64,000 nucleotides of DNA from Candidatus Nanohalarchaeota archaeon (lineage in GTDB: Archaea > Nanohalarchaeota > Nanosalinia > Nanosalinales > Nanosalinaceae). Under the pieces are notes generated by a model. That model worked only from the letters and a program-made list of their open reading frames with translations, was not told the origin of the DNA and searched no databases. The position numbers and the translations under genes were made by a program. Below are positions 11,303 through 23,577 of the stretch, piece after piece; position 1 is the first letter of the stretch, and each line of letters opens with the position of its first letter. The stretch is from positions 186,001-250,000 of the forward strand of contig JALDAJ010000001.1 of assembly GCA_022729235.1 (NCBI GenBank). The letters run 5' to 3'.

Positions 11303-11644
11303 ATGCGTTTCGAAGCCGAGGTCATAACCGAGGAAATCCTCCCTGCGATAAGGAGTATCATCGCCACTAGACTTCACCAGGAGTACGGTCTGACACAGGA
11401 GGAAATAGCCAACAGGCTCGAAGTCACACAGCCCGCTGTATCTCAATATTTAAGCCAGTCGCGCGCCGACCAGGACGTGGTAGAGAAATTGAGAGATGAC
11501 CCGCAGGTAGACATCATGCTGGACGATGCCTCGGGTAACGCCGCGAAGGGTAAAGAGTTCTCAGGAAATGTCTCGCAGGTAATCGAAACCGTGCGTGACA
11601 AGGGACTGCTCAAAGAGAAGTTTCAGGACACCAAGAAACTCTAG
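11303..11644 (+). CDS. Helix-turn-helix transcriptional regulator
   Basis: 113 residues. The N-terminal half carries an HTH of the Xre/lambda-repressor type (YGLTQEEIANRLEVTQPAVS, about residues 28-47), the layout of the short archaeal HTH regulators whose C-terminal part senses a ligand. The C-terminal 60 residues are unassigned. A perfect palindrome just upstream of the start suggests autoregulation. The stop overlaps the stop of the convergent surface-protein gene inside a CTAG. The target genes and ligand are unknown. Confidence 0.75.
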   Translation: MRFEAEVITEEILPAIRSIIATRLHQEYGLTQEEIANRLEVTQPAVSQYLSQSRADQDVVEKLRDDPQVDIMLDDASGNAAKGKEFSGNVSQVIETVRDKGLLKEKFQDTKKL

Positions 11645-13698
11645 TTCTCGAAGCCGTCCCACTCGAATTCTTCTGCCTCTTCTTCAGCCCTATCCACTAG
11701 ACCTTTCAGCCTATCCTCGATATCTTCGATAATCCCTGTATCTATGTCATATCCTTCAAGGAGCTCTCCCGTATCATAGTCTTCACTTCTGTAGAGGAAA
11801 CCTCCTACGCCCGCTATAACAAGCAGGGTTAATCCGCCTCCAACCATAAGAAACGTGTTCCTGCGGTCTATCCTGTGCTCTCTTTCAATATCCTCAAGAG
11901 CGTCACTAGCCTTCTGGTAATCCTCTTCTATATTTTCAAGGTAGTCAGAGATTTTATAGTACTCCCCATCTTCCTTTGCATCTCTTGCCCCATCTATCCT
12001 GTTCCTGAAGTCAGAGGTCTCTGATTCCAGTCTCTCCATCCTCTCACCGGATAGCACGCCTTCAAGCCGCGTTATATTTTGCTCTAGAAGTTCGAACCTG
12101 TCCTCGTACCCGGACAGATCAGACTCAAGCCGTTCTTCCTGGTCTCCCGTAGCCCTGACCGCAAGAGTTGTCTCCTCCGATACAAGGTCTCCGGCAGAAA
12201 TCACCAGGTCATAACCCCCGACATCAGCTTCATCAGTCGGTACAGTGAACATGGCTGTTGTCGAGTTGCCAGGTCTGAGTTCATCAATCGTATAAGTATC
12301 GGAGAAAAGTTCGTCAGCAGAGGCAGATATATCAGTTCCGGGAATGAAAACATCACCAGTATTCTCCACCGTTACGCTGAAAGTCGTTGATTCCCCTGCC
12401 TCTACCGAGACGTTTTCAGGGGTTGAAAAGCTGAGGTCAGGATCTGCGTCCGGGTCATAAGTGAACTCACTAGTCTCTGCTTCACTCCACCAGCCTGCAT
12501 TATCCCGGAATCTGACGTAAAGCGTGTGTTCTCCAGCATCGAGACCGGCTACCGAAGCAGTGAACTCGTCCGTGGTATCATTTATTTCAACCGGGGCGCC
12601 ATCACCGGTATCAAGACCATCATCGTTGTAGAAGTATTCCAGCTCATCCAGTCCTGAAGCATCAAATGCATCGAACTCGACAGGGAAGTTATCATTGACC
12701 AGTCCGGAGGGCATCTCAAGAGAAACTACTGTCGGCGGACTCGCGTCAAAGACAAACTCGAAAAATCCTTCCTCCTCACAGTTACCCGCCATGTCACAGA
12801 CCTCAACAGTCAGGTTTACCTCTTGATCAGTGTAGTCGTCATCTATTTCGCAGCTGGTCGTAGTATCAGTTATACCTTCCACGCTATCAATAGTATCTCC
12901 ATCCTCATCCTGGCATTCCAGGTTAACGCCTTCATCCTCACTGTTATCCGCGATTTCTATCGTAAGACTGTCACCATCCTCCCATTTATGGATTCCAGGG
13001 GACGGGGTGAAACTTGGGTCAACCTCGAAGTCAATCGTGGTATCGACCGTGAACTCCCATGTTTCAGAATCACTGTTATAACCTTCATCAAAGGCTGTAG
13101 CTTCGATAGTATACTCTCCGTCATCAAGCCCATCTCCAAGTTCTATAGTACAGGTTTCTGAATCGGAATCCGCGTCGATGCAGTCTTTCTCATCGATTTC
13201 ATCACCGTCACCGTCCTCGATAGATACCGTGATATTCTCTATATTCGACGTCTCATCGGTAGCCTCGACCTCTATTTCGGGTTCATCATCATTGGTGAAT
13301 TCATCCGGTCTCTCGAGAGAAAGCTCCGGGTTATTGTTATCTACCGTGACTTCTATTATCTCCCAGTCCTCCTCACTTTCTGTCTCGTTAGCCCTGAGTT
13401 CGTAAGTCCCTGTACCTGCATCCGACAGATCCCAGTCATAGACCCAGTCGTTATCATCTTCAGACTCGAAATCATACAGTTCGCCCCATTCGTCATCGGA
13501 GTCTTCCCGGTAAGAAAACGCGACAGGACCTGAGTCACTATTCACCGTTAGTGGGTACTCCTCCGCCATCGCATCAGATATAACACCCTCGTCCTCTGGA
13601 TCAACCCATTCAAGCGCTACCGCGGCTCCGACAAGCAGTGCTGTAGCAGAAACCAGTACTGTTAATTTGGAGACCGGGTTTTTGGTGGCGGAGAACAC
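11641..13698 (-). CDS. Giant acidic surface protein with Ig-like repeats and C-terminal anchor
   Basis: 685 residues with a GTG start. The N-terminal hydrophobic segment (SKLTVLVSATALLVGAAVAL, residues 9-28) is a signal peptide or anchor. Several beta-sandwich domains follow, recognisable from repeated phrases such as TYELRANET, EYTIEATAFDEG, VNLTVEVCDMAGNC and TLYVRFRDNAGWW, and an NPF/CARDB-like segment (SVEAGESTTFSVTVENTGDVF). After these come a helical stretch (about 510-590), a membrane helix (FLMVGGGLTLLVIAGVGGFL) and a short acidic cytoplasmic tail. The central domains contain paired cysteines (DCIDADSDSETC; CDMAGNC), likely disulfides. A cell-surface or adhesion role is inferred, relevant for a host-attached DPANN cell. 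Confidence 0.7.
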   Translation of the reverse strand: MFSATKNPVSKLTVLVSATALLVGAAVALEWVDPEDEGVISDAMAEEYPLTVNSDSGPVAFSYREDSDDEWGELYDFESEDDNDWVYDWDLSDAGTGTYELRANETESEEDWEIIEVTVDNNNPELSLERPDEFTNDDEPEIEVEATDETSNIENITVSIEDGDGDEIDEKDCIDADSDSETCTIELGDGLDDGEYTIEATAFDEGYNSDSETWEFTVDTTIDFEVDPSFTPSPGIHKWEDGDSLTIEIADNSEDEGVNLECQDEDGDTIDSVEGITDTTTSCEIDDDYTDQEVNLTVEVCDMAGNCEEEGFFEFVFDASPPTVVSLEMPSGLVNDNFPVEFDAFDASGLDELEYFYNDDGLDTGDGAPVEINDTTDEFTASVAGLDAGEHTLYVRFRDNAGWWSEAETSEFTYDPDADPDLSFSTPENVSVEAGESTTFSVTVENTGDVFIPGTDISASADELFSDTYTIDELRPGNSTTAMFTVPTDEADVGGYDLVISAGDLVSEETTLAVRATGDQEERLESDLSGYEDRFELLEQNITRLEGVLSGERMERLESETSDFRNRIDGARDAKEDGEYYKISDYLENIEEDYQKASDALEDIEREHRIDRRNTFLMVGGGLTLLVIAGVGGFLYRSEDYDTGELLEGYDIDTGIIEDIEDRLKGLVDRAEEEAEEFEWDGFEN

Positions 13699-17606: not shown

Positions 17607-19124
17607 ATGGTCCTCGACACCGCTCTGCTCGCTCCGGCGAGCGGAGAAGACGCCCTGTTAAGGGTGCTTTTTGCCCTTCTGATACTTGTATTTGGACATA
17701 TAGGTGTGAAACTTGTAGGGCTTGCATCGAGAAAGTTATGGATTCAGGGCAGAGACTTGAACAAGAAAGAGGTTAAAGAAAGACATGAAGCCCTGCAGTA
17801 CCTTACGTACCTGTTTGACGGCGCAGTAGTCGTAGTTGCTCTATTGTATCTCAACGCAGGAATTACTACGGATATAACCACGGAATTTGTACAGTTCATG
17901 CCTGAACTCCTATCTGTCATCCTACTTGGTATACTCGGAATCATACTCATCAACCTCGGTGTAAAGCTAGGGGCAGAATTCCTCGAAATCCTCGGTATGA
18001 AAAGCTACCTCCGGGAAGTAGGTCTCTCGGGAAGCGCACTAAATGTTATCGCAGGACTGGTCAAGGCGTTCCTATACCTTATCCTCCTCCAGATAGCTCT
18101 CGAACAGCTCGGTGTAGGAGAGACTTTCATCAGCGAGCTCGTGACTGCCTCATCCTGGGCTGCCGCACTACTGGCTGCAGGGCTACTTTTCTACGGGTTT
18201 AAGGATTTGTTCCAGAACTTTGCTGCAGGGATTTACCTCAAAAACTCAAGGCTAGTGAGACCTGGAGAAGAGATTAACATGGGTGATGAAACCGGAGAGA
18301 TAAAAGAGATCTCGCTCTTCAGCGCCACAGTTAATACTGACACAGGTTATACCCTGCTAACCCCTAACAAGGAGGTCATGAACTCAGATATCCGTTTCAA
18401 GAGGACTAAAAGCGACGTGGAGACCCTGGAGGATATGAAGGACTACTTCGTCGCCGAAAAGGAGTCCTACAGCGGACCTGCATCGATGGAGATGGCGCTT
18501 GATATCTTCGGCTACAGGAAAGATCAGGAAGAGATAGACGAAGCAGCGGAAAGCCTTGATCCGGAAGACCTCATCACTGCGGTAGAGGAACTGACAGAAG
18601 AAGAGGTAAGAGGTGCTTTCGTACCTCAAGAGAAGATAACAGACATAGGCGACGAATTCAAGGCATGGTTCAATGACGGGGCGTTGCTAACAACATACTT
18701 CGACCGCGAGAAACTGTTCTCCGAGTCGGGCGGAGAGTACGCTCTCTCAGTAGGCTTTGAATCCGATGAGACGCTCGTGATAGACCCGAGCTCGAAGACA
18801 GGCGGAGTTTACTACGTCAACAGGCAGAAACTCTATGAGGCGATGGAGAACAGAGGCTATCTGGTGCTCGCACCTGAGGGAACAACCGCTTACTGGCGTA
18901 TAAAGAACGATTTGATATACGGAGACAAGAACTACTACGAGGAACTCTCCAAGACCCTGGAAACACGGCTGACAAAGATTCTGAGACAGGGAAGAATACT
19001 GAAGAATGTTATGCCTTCGTCCGTGAAGAGCTACATGGAGAACTGGAGATCAGAGCGATACGTCACACGCATATGGCAACCAGAAAAACAGGGGGGAGAA
19101 AATGAGGCTTCTAAAAATAACTGA
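17607..19124 (+). CDS. MscS-type mechanosensitive channel fused to a C39-peptidase-like domain
   Basis: 505 residues. The first 190 residues contain about five hydrophobic helices. The MscS core follows (FAAGIYLKNSRLVRPGEEI, then VNTDTGYTLLTPNKEVMNS). From about residue 270 the protein turns into a C39-like domain: ESYSGPASMEMALDIFGY aligns with the C39 motif around the catalytic Cys, and YALSVGFESDETLVIDPSS aligns with the His/Asp half. The Cys is replaced (YSGPA instead of CGPA) and the usual His is missing, so it should bind rather than cut peptides. The last 23 nt overlap the first ATP-grasp gene. The fusion and neighbours suggest a channel gated or modified through a peptide tag. Confidence 0.72.
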   Translation: MVLDTALLAPASGEDALLRVLFALLILVFGHIGVKLVGLASRKLWIQGRDLNKKEVKERHEALQYLTYLFDGAVVVVALLYLNAGITTDITTEFVQFMPELLSVILLGILGIILINLGVKLGAEFLEILGMKSYLREVGLSGSALNVIAGLVKAFLYLILLQIALEQLGVGETFISELVTASSWAAALLAAGLLFYGFKDLFQNFAAGIYLKNSRLVRPGEEINMGDETGEIKEISLFSATVNTDTGYTLLTPNKEVMNSDIRFKRTKSDVETLEDMKDYFVAEKESYSGPASMEMALDIFGYRKDQEEIDEAAESLDPEDLITAVEELTEEEVRGAFVPQEKITDIGDEFKAWFNDGALLTTYFDREKLFSESGGEYALSVGFESDETLVIDPSSKTGGVYYVNRQKLYEAMENRGYLVLAPEGTTAYWRIKNDLIYGDKNYYEELSKTLETRLTKILRQGRILKNVMPSSVKSYMENWRSERYVTRIWQPEKQGGENEASKNN

Positions 19125-19905
19125 CCAGGAGCACGGTCAACTCGATAGAGAGTTCGATGAGGTAGAATCGGCCGGAATCGATGATATATCACCCCAGATA
19201 ATAAACGGGGAGAAAAGCGTAGTTGTCAATGGTAGTTCGATATCAGATTACAACTCGGCCTTCCTTGAGATACCCTCGAAAAATGCGATATTCGGGCGTG
19301 TGCTGCTAGAAGCTATAGAGGAGGAGAATGTTACAGTCAACTATCCTTCGATAGCCTTTTTCGTAATGGCCAAGAAAAACTATCTCTACTACGTCCTACA
19401 CCAGAAAGACATTCCTGCCCCGAGGACAGTAGCAGTTGCATCAGAGAAGGCAGCCAGAAATGTAGAGAAAGAGTTGAAAGGACCGCTAGTTGCCAGGCGG
19501 ATAGAAGACATGGAAGAGGTAGAAAGGAAAAAACTGGAGACGGTTGACGGGATACACGATTTCGCGGAAGGATCGGAATACGAGGAAGATATACTCCTCT
19601 TCCACGAGTACAGCAACGGGGATAAATACAAGTGCCTCGTAATCGGGGACAGTATCTTATCTCTCCAGGACACCTCAGACAACTGGAGGTTTGATAATAG
19701 CAGTCTCCAGTACTCCAACCTTTCCAGCGACCGGAAGGAGACTGTTAAAAAGGCGGCAAGAGCTGTCGGAACCAGGTACGCAGAAGTGATACTTAGAGGA
19801 GACGAGATAACCGATATCAACCCCAACCCCGACCTCCAGATGTACTCAGATCTCTCAGGTAAAAACATCTACGGCAGTGTCGCGGAGGTCCTGAAAAATG
19901 AGTGA
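19102..19905 (+). CDS. Divergent RimK-type ATP-grasp protein, possibly inactive
   Basis: 267 residues; start at ATG 19102 behind a strong GGGGGAG ribosome-binding site inside the previous gene. The ATP-grasp fold is recognisable: PSIAFFVMAKKNYLYYVLHQ, GPLVARRIEDME, DILLFHEYSNGDKYKCLVIG, and a last metal motif ITDINPNPDL. Several normally conserved residues differ: Arg in place of Lys in the beta-sheet, and CLVIG instead of the Arg-containing motif. It overlaps the active-looking ATP-grasp gene downstream by 8 nt. A heteromeric ligase with one catalytic and one degenerate subunit is a reasonable guess. Confidence 0.65.
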   Translation: MRLLKITDQEHGQLDREFDEVESAGIDDISPQIINGEKSVVVNGSSISDYNSAFLEIPSKNAIFGRVLLEAIEEENVTVNYPSIAFFVMAKKNYLYYVLHQKDIPAPRTVAVASEKAARNVEKELKGPLVARRIEDMEEVERKKLETVDGIHDFAEGSEYEEDILLFHEYSNGDKYKCLVIGDSILSLQDTSDNWRFDNSSLQYSNLSSDRKETVKKAARAVGTRYAEVILRGDEITDINPNPDLQMYSDLSGKNIYGSVAEVLKNE

Positions 19906-20788
19906 CACAAGGCTCGCAATAGTATACGGGGAAATCTCGACCAAGCACCAGCTAATTATGGAACGGGCAGAAGACATCTTCGACTCCGTTCTCGCAGCAC
20001 CGGTAGACGGATTAAAATACATCTACGGCAAGGACGAGACAAAAGTGCTTTACAAAGATATCGACCTCACCGAGTTCGACGCGGTCTACATAAGAATAGA
20101 TGACCGAGACGCTATGTTTGCGGAGCACCTTGTAGAAGTACTGAATGAGGAAGAAGTTATCACCCAGGCTGAGAACGACACATTTGCGTATGACTCCAAC
20201 AAGTTCTACAACATGAAAGTGCTTGCAGAAAACGGGGTGAACGTACCCGACTCCGTATACACTCTATCACCTGATGTAGCCGTTGAAGCAGCGGAGAAAC
20301 TTGGATACCCGGTTATAATGAAGACTGTCAAAGGCGCAGGCGGGGAAGGCGTTATGCGCGCAACATCCGAGAACGAACTAAAACCTGTGATGGATACGAT
20401 GAAATCACTGGAGCAAGAGATCTGTCTCCAGGAGTACAAGGAGCACGACGGCAGTGACACCCGGATGGTCGTGATAGGCAATCACGTAACAGGATACGGT
20501 CGTACCTCAGGCGGAGACGACTGGAGGTCAAATATATCTGCAGGAGGAGAACGAACAGAAGCAGAAATAGATGAGGAGAAAAGAGAGATAGCACTGAAAG
20601 CAGCCCGGTCAACCGGTTTCGATATATGCGGATGCGACATGATAGATACGGAAGAAGGCTTCTACGTCCTGGAAGTCAACGGAGCCTTCGCAGTTAACGA
20701 AAAAATGAACGAGATAATAGGCGATGACGTTATACTACGCCTAGTTGAAAGGATGCACGAGAAGGCTATTGAAAAGAATCGTGACTAA
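19898..20788 (+). CDS. RimK/glutathione-synthetase-type ATP-grasp ligase
   Basis: 296 residues with a full set of ATP-grasp elements: PVIMKTVKGAGGEGVMRA, LQEYKEHDGSDTRMVVIG, GRTSGGDDWRSNISAGGE and the metal-binding FYVLEVNGAFAV. RimK-type enzymes ligate an amino acid to a carboxylate of a peptide, protein or small molecule using ATP. The usual second Asn of the last motif is seen as EVNGA. It is third in the operon with the MscS-C39 fusion and the divergent ATP-grasp. The stop overlaps the stop of the convergent third ATP-grasp gene. Confidence 0.85.
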   Translation: MSDTRLAIVYGEISTKHQLIMERAEDIFDSVLAAPVDGLKYIYGKDETKVLYKDIDLTEFDAVYIRIDDRDAMFAEHLVEVLNEEEVITQAENDTFAYDSNKFYNMKVLAENGVNVPDSVYTLSPDVAVEAAEKLGYPVIMKTVKGAGGEGVMRATSENELKPVMDTMKSLEQEICLQEYKEHDGSDTRMVVIGNHVTGYGRTSGGDDWRSNISAGGERTEAEIDEEKREIALKAARSTGFDICGCDMIDTEEGFYVLEVNGAFAVNEKMNEIIGDDVILRLVERMHEKAIEKNRD

Positions 20789-21717
20789 CCCATAGATACC
20801 AGAGTTTCAACAAGCCCTTCTACAGTCGGAAGCTTCCGCTTCTTAATCTCTTCATCTTCATAGAAAGCGAGACCTGGCTTCGAATTGAATTCCAGAACCC
20901 ACGGCTTACCATCACTATCGATCATCATATCGACCGAGTATAGACAGGGCTCGTATTTACTGAATTTCTCTTTGACACCCTGAACAGTATCCAGAGCTGT
21001 CTCAGGAACTTCCTCAAGATCAACAAAAGTGATTTCACCCCCAAGATGCACATTACTCAGGAGCCCTTCATCCGGCGTCCTTATATAGGCGAGAGTGTTC
21101 TCCCCGTTCAAAACATAGACCCTTAGATCGTGGACTCCCTCGATACCCAGCTCTTCGATACCTTCAGTCTCTATGAAGCGTTGTACGAGCAGATCTTCTT
21201 CAGGTTCGAACTCTGAGATGTCCTCTATGACCTCTATACCTTTCCCTCCAAAATCGTATCTAGGCTTCACGATAACACGGTCATACTTCTCCAGCATATC
21301 TTTGACCGTCTTCCTATCCGCCTTCTTTGTCTCAGGAATAATACCAGGAAACTCTTGATAGGTTAGAAGCTTATCCTTGCATATCTCCTCAAGATCAAAG
21401 CGGTTCAATACCGGGAGAGCTCTGTTCAACTTTTTCTTCAGCGGAACTGTTTCATCATCAAATTTGAACTTATCGAAAACCACGTCTAACTCAACATCTT
21501 CGACCTCTCTCCAGCCCCCGTCTCTATAAGTAAACCCCTTTCTCAGCCCTGTATCTTCTATCCAGTTAAAATTAGCGATAAAGACCTTACCTCCTCTCTC
21601 TTCAGCAATCTCTGAGAAAATAGCGTAAGACGAGTTCATGTGATCTATATCTTCCCGAAACGGTCTACCTTCCTCACCATTAACCTCATCATCCCAGAGA
21701 ACACTGATTTTCTTCAT
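20785..21717 (-). CDS. Third ATP-grasp ligase, RimK/glutathione-synthetase type
   Basis: 310 residues from ATG 21717, where the family-typical start MKKISVLWDDEV begins; the frame extends 40 codons further but that part lacks conservation and runs into the opposite gene. ATP-grasp motifs: YDRVIVKPRYDFGGKGIEVI, LLVQRFIETEG, HDLRVYVLNGENTLAYIR and KPWVLEFNSKPGLAFY. Its N-terminal domain differs from the other two ATP-grasp proteins. It is convergent with the operon at 17607-20788 and divergent from the DUF1704-like peptidase gene, so the ligases and peptidase share one locus. Confidence 0.82.
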   Translation of the reverse strand: MKKISVLWDDEVNGEEGRPFREDIDHMNSSYAIFSEIAEERGGKVFIANFNWIEDTGLRKGFTYRDGGWREVEDVELDVVFDKFKFDDETVPLKKKLNRALPVLNRFDLEEICKDKLLTYQEFPGIIPETKKADRKTVKDMLEKYDRVIVKPRYDFGGKGIEVIEDISEFEPEEDLLVQRFIETEGIEELGIEGVHDLRVYVLNGENTLAYIRTPDEGLLSNVHLGGEITFVDLEEVPETALDTVQGVKEKFSKYEPCLYSVDMMIDSDGKPWVLEFNSKPGLAFYEDEEIKKRKLPTVEGLVETLVSMG

Positions 21718-21778
21718 AGAACAATCCGGTACTTCACCGCTTAAGTCACTTTTTAACAAGCGATAGGCAAGATATATT

Positions 21779-22999
21779 ATGGAAATCGATTTCTCCAGTG
21801 CGGGCGAAGAAACACTGGAAGAGGCGCTCTCAAACAACTCAGACCCGAGTGTGCACGTGTCAAGCGATAGACCCTTAGAAGACCTTTACAACGCCACGCT
21901 ACTCCTGAAGGACAAGGTAAGCGTCGTCAAGAACGCCGGCATCTCCAACCGCGTAGAAGAAAGAGAGCGGTTCATGGATGCATGGGACAACGGAAAAGGC
22001 TTTGAGCCTGACTTCGAGTTCCAGAACTTTCCCTATAACGCAGAAACCACGCTAATGGTGCTTGAGAAACTAAAACAGGAACTGGAAAAAATAGATCAGG
22101 AAACAATGAAGAAGTACGGCGCCAGAGAACTCGGAGCCCAAGACGTCAGAGATCTGTTTAAAGGACTCTTCCAGGAGTACAGGCTGTACGTCCAGCTGGT
22201 CGACTCTATAGACGACCGCGAAAGGTGGAAGAAGAACTCGCTGGAGATCTGGCCGATGATAGATCAGGGTCACGTAGATAAATGCCGGAAAAAGCTGGAG
22301 AAAGGCTTCAAAGTCGAAGAAAAAGACAAAGACTTGGACTCTCACGACCTCAAGTCGATGTGGAAGGAGGAATTAGAGTGTTTGGGCGTGGAATGGAACA
22401 TTGAAGTACGTGAAGTAGGAGGATGCTTCAACATACCAGAGGAGAGAACAGTTGTAGTCGCTGACGGAAGCAACGAGAAACGATATTATTCACGAGAAGA
22501 AGCTCGCATGTTGACTATGCACGAGCTCTTCCACGTGACAAGAGCTTACAACGGAATCAAAGCCGGTGAGAGCGCAGGACTACCTCCCATCCTCGGACTT
22601 CACACCCCTTTTTATGACATGACAGAGGAGGGCGGCGCCATCTACCGCGAAAAGCAGACTAACGTAGACTACCCGGAGAAAGGAAAAGACTACTACCTGA
22701 GGGCATTGGCAGCATACTACCAGCATCAAGATATCGAGTTCCAGGAGATAGTAGAGAAACTGGTCGACCTAGGAGGTAGCGTCGAAAGAAGCTTCTACTT
22801 AGCCGCGAGAAACCGCGAGATGCTCCGGCACCACATCTACCTCGGCGGCTACTGGAAACAGTGGAAGCAGAGGGAAAACGTGGAACCATTACTTCTAGGA
22901 AAAGTCAACCCGGAATGGGCGGAGAGGTTATGGAGTGAAGTAGAAGCAGAAGGTATGCTGGAGAAACCACCGGTTACTTCCAACGACCTTTTCGACTAG
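21779..22999 (+). CDS. DUF1704/MATCAP-like zinc metallopeptidase
   Basis: 406 residues. A metal site is visible at MHELFHVTRAYNG (residue 243 region) followed by GLPPILGLH and DMTEEGGAIYREKQ. This spacing mirrors the DUF1704 (QEGLA-motif) family, whose eukaryotic member MATCAP removes the terminal tyrosine from tubulin. Here the motif is HExxH, while the relatives I recall have HExxxH, so the assignment is probable rather than certain. DUF1704 genes in bacteria often sit beside ATP-grasp ligases, exactly the context here. Removal of a C-terminal residue added by the neighbouring ligases is the inferred role. Confidence 0.62.
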   Translation: MEIDFSSAGEETLEEALSNNSDPSVHVSSDRPLEDLYNATLLLKDKVSVVKNAGISNRVEERERFMDAWDNGKGFEPDFEFQNFPYNAETTLMVLEKLKQELEKIDQETMKKYGARELGAQDVRDLFKGLFQEYRLYVQLVDSIDDRERWKKNSLEIWPMIDQGHVDKCRKKLEKGFKVEEKDKDLDSHDLKSMWKEELECLGVEWNIEVREVGGCFNIPEERTVVVADGSNEKRYYSREEARMLTMHELFHVTRAYNGIKAGESAGLPPILGLHTPFYDMTEEGGAIYREKQTNVDYPEKGKDYYLRALAAYYQHQDIEFQEIVEKLVDLGGSVERSFYLAARNREMLRHHIYLGGYWKQWKQRENVEPLLLGKVNPEWAERLWSEVEAEGMLEKPPVTSNDLFD

Positions 23000-23085: not shown

Positions 23086-23577
23086 ATGGACTTCGTTGTA
23101 AGAGTCGATTATTCAACTGGTTTGGAGGATAAAATCGGATCAAAAGCTGACAGTAGACAAGAACTTTCTGAAATACGAGACCAGTTCTATAAGCCCAACG
23201 GAACGAAGTTGTCAGATTTCAGTCCGCGAGATGTAATCGTTAGAAAACGTACATTTCCAGAGAAAAAGACGCTGGTCAAAATAAACATTATCCAAAAGCC
23301 CCTGGGATACACAGACACAAAAGAGGATGTTGAGAACATTGAAGACTATGAAAAATGGGGAGAATTTACCTCTTACGCCGTCGAATACAGGCTGACCGTA
23401 GAGAACAAGAAAATTCCGATCCTGATAGAAACATTTGACTTCGGCAAATTTATCAAGATAGAATCTCCGTCACCAGAGATACTAGACAGTATTCTCCAAG
23501 AACTTAACCTAGATAGAAGCGAGATAATTGAAAAGAACTCGGCCGAACTACTCGCAGAAGAGAGGGATATGATTTAG
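23086..23577 (+). CDS. Uncharacterised protein, weakly CYTH-like
   Basis: 163 residues. The strand pattern VIVRKRTFPEKKTLVKINII followed by AVEYRLTVENKKIPILIETF and GKFIKIESPSPEILDSILQE resembles the second half of CYTH proteins (class IV adenylate cyclase/thiamine triphosphatase), but the N-terminal ExExK motif is not evident. The gene is richer in A/T than its neighbours, a possible sign of transfer. It stands alone between the peptidase and the PIN gene. Confidence 0.35.
   Translation: MDFVVRVDYSTGLEDKIGSKADSRQELSEIRDQFYKPNGTKLSDFSPRDVIVRKRTFPEKKTLVKINIIQKPLGYTDTKEDVENIEDYEKWGEFTSYAVEYRLTVENKKIPILIETFDFGKFIKIESPSPEILDSILQELNLDRSEIIEKNSAELLAEERDMI

What the first reader, a model, noticed from the sequence alone, without database searches (positions are those of the whole stretch)
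17607..22999. Putative peptide-tagging system: MscS/C39 fusion, three ATP-grasp ligases and a MATCAP-like peptidase
Four overlapping or adjacent genes plus one divergent gene combine a mechanosensitive channel carrying a C39-like domain, an apparently inactive and two active-looking RimK-type ligases, and a DUF1704-like metallopeptidase. ATP-grasp amidoligases add amino acids to peptide ends. DUF1704 enzymes in eukaryotes (MATCAP) remove a terminal residue from tubulin. A write/erase pair beside a channel with a binding-only peptidase domain suggests that channel gating or stability is set by a reversible peptide tail, perhaps in response to osmotic stress.
Basis: partly seen in the sequence, partly recalled or inferred. 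Interest (0 to 1): 0.85.

Follow-up and report, generated by a model that had tools for sequence, protein, structure and literature searches.

The report
Archaeal channel–ligase–peptidase gene cluster
In tiny salt-loving archaea, a pressure-sensitive channel fused to a peptidase-like domain is encoded with a paired dead and live amino-acid-adding enzyme; where the channel's own peptidase has died, a relative of a human tubulin-trimming peptidase usually sits beside it, which points to an uncharacterised system that builds and trims short amino-acid chains at the membrane.

Summary
The window (a 1.03-Mb Nanohaloarchaeota genome) encodes an MscS channel with a papain/C39-like C-terminal domain, a degenerate RimK-like ATP-grasp protein (AG1), an intact RimK (AG2), a divergent intact TTL/YheCD-like ATP-grasp (AG3) and a MATCAP/QEGLA zincin. 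The core (MscS-C39, AG1, AG2) occurs in three archaeal phylum-level groups, also where it does not sit beside eIF2γ; MscS-C39 is in 25 of 28 Nanohaloarchaeota genomes. AG1 has lost catalytic residues in every copy examined; AG2 keeps them. The C39 domain is not generally "binding-only": most relatives keep Cys-His-Asp. The window copy lost Cys and His (S289, E377). All seven loci with a linked MATCAP have a dead C39; no live-C39 locus examined has one. Live-C39 loci instead often carry GCS2, a P-loop protein, AstE, M20, M29 or N-formylglutamate amidohydrolase. One dead-C39 genome lacks MATCAP, and two independent losses could explain the pattern. Best reading: a membrane-anchored module that ligates and removes amino acids (probably glutamate), its hydrolase moved from cis to trans here. 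That the channel's own tail is the substrate is unshown. New variant of known amidoligase–peptidase systems (closest: Pseudomonas RloABC).

The parts
17607..18422 (+). MscS channel moiety: about five hydrophobic helices, TM3-like Gly/Ala helix and beta domain (residues 1-272)
   Evidence: PF00924 7.8e-8 at residues 200-262; PDB MscS/YnaI/MscK hits 1e-6 to 1e-5; hydropathy
18423..19121 (+). C39/papain-like domain (residues 273 to about 434) plus C-terminal extension with an invariant W near the end (W490); it takes the place of the usual MscS C-terminal cage domain
   Evidence: PF13529 in 25/25 family members; AF2 pLDDT 80 and Foldseek Alr0975 3e-7, ComA/PCAT1 2-3e-4; alignment A2
18471..18473 (+). 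Position of the catalytic Cys: Ser289 here, Cys in most relatives
18735..18737 (+). Position of the catalytic His: Glu377 here, His in relatives with the Cys
18783..18785 (+). Asp393, third triad position, invariant
19102..19905 (+). AG1: degenerate RimK-like ATP-grasp protein, predicted inactive partner of AG2
   Evidence: NCBIfam MptN/RimK about 1e-6; hhalign with AG2 99.7%; Gly-rich loop, RSN motif and D/E/N metal ligands not conserved; 23-nt overlap with MscS
19898..20788 (+). AG2: RimK-family alpha-L-glutamate-ligase-like ATP-grasp enzyme with intact catalytic residues (K142, R210, N212, D247, E259, N261)
   Evidence: PF08443 3e-35, TIGR00768 144.5 vs 143.4 bits; PDB RimK 7e-44; residues invariant in 22/22; 8-nt overlap with AG1
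20785..21717 (-). AG3: YheC/D-TTL-like ATP-grasp ligase, catalytic D282/E295/N297 near-invariant (longest ORF to 21837)
   Evidence: PF14398 1e-15, PF03133 TTL 1e-10; 18-row alignment
21779..22999 (+). MATCAP/DUF1704/QEGLA zincin, divergent from AG3
   Evidence: PF08014 4e-9, TIGR02421 3e-13; profile hit to KIAA0895L 7z5g 1e-13
22520..22534 (+). HELFH zinc motif (H248-H252), the short HExxH form

Best explanation
The genes form one functional module that builds and removes short amino-acid chains, probably glutamate, at a mechanosensitive channel. AG2 is the ligase; AG1 is a catalytically dead homologue that most likely works as its partner subunit; both are translationally coupled to the channel. 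The papain/C39-like domain on the channel's cytosolic end is, in the ancestral form, the hydrolase. In the lineage of this window that domain has lost its Cys and His and probably only binds the substrate, while a separate metallopeptidase of the MATCAP family does the trimming, together with a second ligase (AG3). Shown: gene content, homology, intact or lost catalytic residues, operon overlap, deep conservation, and that linked MATCAP occurs only with a dead C39. Inferred: glutamate as the added residue, AG1-AG2 complex, replacement of the cis hydrolase by MATCAP, and any effect on channel opening. The acceptor (the channel's own C-terminus, another protein, or a free peptide) is not determined.
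For: MscS-C39 in 25/28 Nanohaloarchaeota genomes; MscS-C39, AG1 and AG2 adjacent in all loci long enough to tell in Nanohaloarchaeota, the Aenigmatarchaeota-labelled group and the Diapherotrites-labelled group, and MscS-C39 plus AG2 alone in a further phylum-level group. Outside Nanohaloarchaeota the core is not beside eIF2gamma/S6e, so linkage is not just a static neighbourhood. AG1 dead in all 22+11 copies, AG2 intact in nearly all. Linked MATCAP in 7 loci, all with dead C39; in none of the live-C39 loci (Fisher 2e-6 on 32 loci without correction for kinship). G020 (dead, MATCAP) next to its sister L069 (live, GCS2) is a second event outside the main family. Other loci fill the same region with other hydrolases and ligases: GCS2, AstE, M20, M29, FGase, extra RimK. 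Bacterial QEGLA genes sit in FGase-QEGLA-ATP-grasp operons.
Against: No experiment and no predicted complex. G007 (99% complete) has a dead C39 and AG3 but no MATCAP anywhere, so replacement is not strict. A single Cys loss within the main family is not rejected (AU p 0.196); with one more event in G020 the association rests on as few as two events, and the independent-pairs test cannot reach significance. Glutamate specificity is inferred from RimK kinship only.
Confidence: 0.5

Rival explanations
1. One reading: ligases and MATCAP add and remove a tail on the channel's own C-terminus, which sets gating or stability.
For: Strict linkage of ligases to the channel; every MscS-C39 ends with a conserved W-x-P-type motif followed by a short, often acidic tail; MATCAP family enzymes are C-terminal carboxypeptidases (PMC10499314) and RimK acts on an acidic C-terminus (PMC12239564).
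Against: In the minimal systems (L028, L029) the protein ends right after the W-x-P motif without a tail. Acidic tails are common in halophiles. The seeming tail conservation next to the stop codon is explained by the overlapping AG1 start. Accessory enzymes in relatives act on small molecules in their known families.
Confidence: 0.2
2. Soluble glutamyl-peptide pathway: AG2/AG1, AG3 and GCS2 make a free alpha- or gamma-glutamyl peptide (an anionic osmolyte or thiol-like compound), peptidases break it down, and the channel with its peptidase domain releases or senses it on osmotic downshift.
For: GCS2, FGase, AstE and M20 next to the core in relatives; closest fold of the C39 domain is Alr0975, which acts on glutathione; Trk potassium uptake genes lie next door in Nanohaloarchaeota; RimK can make free poly-glutamate (PMC11957791); Rlo mutants fail in hypo-osmotic medium (PMC12239564).
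Against: No transporter or regulator confirms a metabolite pathway; Trk linkage is not seen outside Nanohaloarchaeota; hydrolase families are variable, so the product need not be the same everywhere.
Confidence: 0.25
3. The neighbourhood is only a conserved housekeeping gene order (S6e, eIF2gamma, RpoE, S24e) in small genomes, and the genes do not work together.
For: In Nanohaloarchaeota the whole stretch from TrkA to S24e is syntenic.
Against: Core recurs with other surroundings in other phylum-level groups; 8- and 23-nt overlaps; variable part always contains ligases, hydrolases or the P-loop protein.
Confidence: 0.05

Closest known systems
RloABC of Pseudomonas aeruginosa (secreted retropepsin RloA, inactive transglutaminase fused to 7 TM helices RloB, ATP-grasp RloC; PMC12239564)
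   Same: One locus with a membrane protein carrying an inactive papain-fold-type domain, a RimK-like ATP-grasp protein and a separate peptidase; linked genetically to hypo-osmotic tolerance
   Different: Here the membrane protein is an MscS channel with a C39-like domain, usually catalytically intact; peptidase is a MATCAP zincin; a dead RimK homologue is always present; archaea, not Proteobacteria; RloB's domain is predicted periplasmic
RimK/RimB polyglutamylation of ribosomal protein RpsF (PMC11957791)
   Same: RimK-type writer with a dedicated protease eraser
   Different: No channel, no dead RimK partner, different peptidase fold; bacterial bS6 (RpsF) is not homologous to the archaeal S6e next door
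Bacterial FGase-QEGLA-ATP-grasp operon (NZ_CP080529, NZ_CP132312)
   Same: MATCAP-family peptidase beside an ATP-grasp ligase; FGase also occurs beside AG2 in two archaeal loci
   Different: Ligase is glutathione-synthetase-like; no MscS-C39; QEGLA there is about 610-660 aa
Eukaryotic tubulin tail cycle: TTL/TTLL ligases and MATCAP/TMCP carboxypeptidases (PMC10499314)
   Same: TTL-superfamily-like ligase (AG3) adjacent to a MATCAP-family peptidase
   Different: Catalytic motif is HExxH here, HExxxH in eukaryotes; no tubulin substrate known; AG3 scores higher to YheC/D than to TTL
Dead C39 domain in a transporter (HlyB C39-like domain, 3zua; from own knowledge, structure seen as a Foldseek match)
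   Same: A catalytically dead C39 domain on the cytosolic side of a membrane transport protein, kept for binding
   Different: ABC exporter, not an MscS channel; no ligases

Membership tests
MscS mechanosensitive channels | TM3-beta domain module | tested here: met
   PF00924 above cut-off; PDB hits to MscS, YnaI, MscK
MscS mechanosensitive channels | C-terminal alpha/beta cage domain | tested here: not met
   Region after residue 272 is a C39/papain-like domain; hence an MscS variant
C39/papain-like peptidases | Fold | tested here: met
   PF13529 25/25 members, AF2 and Foldseek
C39/papain-like peptidases | Cys-His-Asp triad in the window copy | tested here: not met
   S289, E377, D393; intact in most relatives
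RimK-family ligases (AG2) | ATP-grasp fold with intact D/E/N metal ligands and R-S-N motif; RimK-family score | tested here: met
   TIGR00768 144.5 vs 143.4 bits; residues invariant
RimK-family ligases (AG2) | Adds glutamate to a carboxyl terminus | not testable with these tools
   Biochemical property
RimK-family ligases (AG1) | Intact catalytic residues | tested here: not met
   Gly-rich loop, RSN and D247/N261 positions lost or variable in all copies
MATCAP/DUF1704 (PF08014) | Profile score above curated cut-off | tested here: met
   36.3 vs 27 bits
MATCAP/DUF1704 (PF08014) | HExxxH zinc motif with downstream Glu | tested here: not met
   HExxH form in all locus-linked copies, downstream E-E-G kept; unlinked archaeal copies mostly have HExxxH. 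A divergent member, not a typical one
MATCAP/DUF1704 (PF08014) | Fold | tested here: inconclusive
   Model pLDDT 58, no significant Foldseek match; profile match to 7z5g 1e-13
RloABC system | RloB (inactive transglutaminase + 7TM) and retropepsin RloA | tested here: not met
   Membrane protein is MscS-C39 and peptidase is MATCAP; similar architecture, not a member

The most novel reading that the evidence does not exclude
A reversible amino-acid tail, written by a dead/live RimK pair and a TTL-like ligase and erased either by the channel's own C39 domain or by a MATCAP peptidase, directly controls a mechanosensitive channel in DPANN archaea: an archaeal counterpart of the tubulin tail cycle acting on a channel.
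Probability: 0.12. Interest if true: 0.9.

Novelty: new variant of a known kind. Interest (0 to 1): 0.62.

Why it matters
If right, it couples a mechanosensitive channel to enzymatic peptide building and trimming, for which no precedent was found in the papers searched, and it supplies a natural experiment (live C39 versus dead C39 plus MATCAP) that predicts what the unknown prokaryotic MATCAP/QEGLA family does. It would also give a function to a deeply conserved module in tiny host-dependent archaea with few assigned genes, and offer a prokaryotic setting to study MATCAP-type and TTL-type enzymes outside tubulin.

Tried and rejected
Conserved C-terminal tail motifs (LDEF[TI]D, E[TA][TS]EDN) as a modification site: rejected, since they fall in the 20-23 nt overlap with the AG1 start codon region. 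Archaeal S6e next door as a RimK substrate: rejected as evidence, because it is not homologous to bacterial bS6 (own knowledge) and the core lies elsewhere in other groups. Strict phylogenetic proof of correlated C39 loss and MATCAP gain: too few independent events. The founding review of amidoligase-peptidase neighbourhoods (Iyer et al. 2009, PMC3268129) is not held, so its content was not checked. Searches for papers on MscS with a C39 peptidase, and for ATP-grasp with DUF1704, returned none. Searches centred on L-handles failed and were repeated from G-handles.
Full report
What is there. The window lies at 186001-250000 of a 1,027,595-base single-contig genome; its relatives are Nanohaloarchaeota. 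The channel gene carries an MscS beta domain and about five hydrophobic helices. After residue 272, where MscS normally has its alpha/beta cage, a different domain begins. AG1 overlaps the channel gene by 23 nt and AG2 overlaps AG1 by 8 nt, so the three are probably translated together. AG3 is convergent with AG2 (4-nt overlap) and divergent from the MATCAP gene; homologues indicate a start at 21717.

The C39 domain. The window copy alone scores poorly (PF13529 0.18), but all 25 family members match PF13529, the best at 9.8e-13, and 15 match phytochelatin synthase. A model built on the 25-sequence alignment (pLDDT 80) matches Alr0975, a primitive phytochelatin synthase that acts on glutathione (3e-7), and C39 peptidase domains of ComA and PCAT1 (2-3e-4). 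In most relatives the Cys, His and Asp of the triad are present. In the window the Cys is Ser289 and the His is Glu377, Asp393 being kept. Both residues are lost in most of the other dead copies as well; in the close pair L036/L053 only the Cys is lost.

The ligases. AG2 is a RimK-family enzyme (E. coli-type RimK 8e-44) with every catalytic position invariant in 22 copies. AG1 aligns with AG2 over its full length, but the glycine-rich loop, the RSN motif and the metal ligands are lost or variable. This holds in the Diapherotrites-labelled group too, so AG1 is an old pseudoenzyme kept beside an active paralogue. A phylum-level group with the minimal system (G035, G057, G308, G313) has MscS-C39 and AG2 without AG1. 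AG3 keeps its catalytic D/E/N and passes the Pfam cut-offs for YheC/D and TTL.

The peptidase. The MATCAP assignment rests on sequence: PF08014 above cut-off, and a profile of 13 archaeal members that finds human KIAA0895L at 1e-13. The model of the window protein was too poor to add anything. All locus-linked copies have HExxH, whereas the eukaryotic enzymes have HExxxH (PMC10499314), as do most unlinked archaeal copies.

Conservation. MscS-C39 is present in 25 of 28 Nanohaloarchaeota genomes, 5 of 156 genomes of the Aenigmatarchaeota-labelled phylum-level group, 11 of 87 of the Diapherotrites-labelled group, and 4 of 19 of a further group. A pattern scan of about 85,000 prokaryote species found it only in such DPANN lineages, within the limits of that method. 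In Nanohaloarchaeota the genes sit between eIF2gamma and PIN/RpoE; elsewhere the surroundings differ but the core stays together.

The variable part. Downstream of or beside the core lie: AG3 plus MATCAP (window, G002, G003, G004, G005, G009); other RimK-like genes plus MATCAP (G020); GCS2 with or without AG3; a MobB-like P-loop protein with or without AG3 or AstE; or, in the Diapherotrites-labelled group, extra RimK, GCS2, M20, M29 and, in two loci, N-formylglutamate amidohydrolase directly after AG2. FGase, QEGLA and an ATP-grasp gene form an operon on rhizobial plasmids, so the same parts recur together in bacteria.

Live C39 versus MATCAP. Seven loci have a linked MATCAP and all seven have a dead C39. 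No locus with a live C39 has one. Of three other dead copies, two are on contigs that end too early (L053, L057) and one, G007, truly lacks MATCAP. Fisher's test gives 2e-6 but ignores kinship. On a tree of the channel, AG1 and AG2 the changes number four each. A single loss within the main family is not rejected (AU p 0.196), and G020 is one more event. The association is thus suggestive, not proven. Genomes with a dead C39 also never carry the P-loop protein or GCS2 at the locus. MATCAP genes elsewhere in the genome do occur in some live-C39 genomes.

Mechanism. The simplest account is a writer/eraser module attached to a mechanosensitive channel: AG2 (with AG1) ligates amino acids, the channel's C39 domain hydrolyses, and in this lineage a MATCAP peptidase has probably taken over the hydrolysis while the dead domain may still bind. 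The nearest characterised architecture is RloABC of P. [quoted passage not shown] What is modified remains open.

Verdict. A real, deeply conserved and, as far as the papers searched show, undescribed module; a new variant of the known class of amidoligase-peptidase systems. The specific claim of channel gating by a reversible tail is untested.

Noticed in passing
window 19102-19124 and relatives: Apparent conserved channel C-termini (LDEF[TI]D in some, E[TA][TS]EDN in others) coincide with the overlap with the AG1 start and are explained by the shared nucleotides.
   Followed up: yes
window MscS-C39 residue W490; all relatives: An invariant Trp in a [RQ]-[LIV]-W-x-P-like motif lies at or near the C-terminal end of every copy (25/25), including the minimal systems; possible docking site.
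   Followed up: partly
L144:2967-3683, L145:7654-8346: N-formylglutamate amidohydrolase (PF05013, 2e-42 and 3e-34) directly follows AG2, mirroring the bacterial FGase-QEGLA-ATP-grasp operon.
   Followed up: partly
L037, L038, L040, L043, L045, L047, L050: A 340-aa protein with an N-terminal barrel-like part and a MobB/CobQ-like P-loop (GxxxxGKTT variant SRMDAGKTT) is divergent from the core only where C39 is live; function unknown.
   Followed up: partly
G006 versus G013 (L037, L057): Two species of one genus carry different versions of the module at the same site (live C39 + P-loop versus dead C39 + AG3), suggesting in-place exchange.
   Followed up: no
window 23086-23577: A 163-aa ORF without Pfam match between the MATCAP gene and the PIN gene; absent from that place in the relatives examined.
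   Followed up: no
window 11641-13698: 685-aa protein with Big_13 and CARDB Ig-like domains, probably a surface protein, next to TrkA/TrkH.
   Followed up: no
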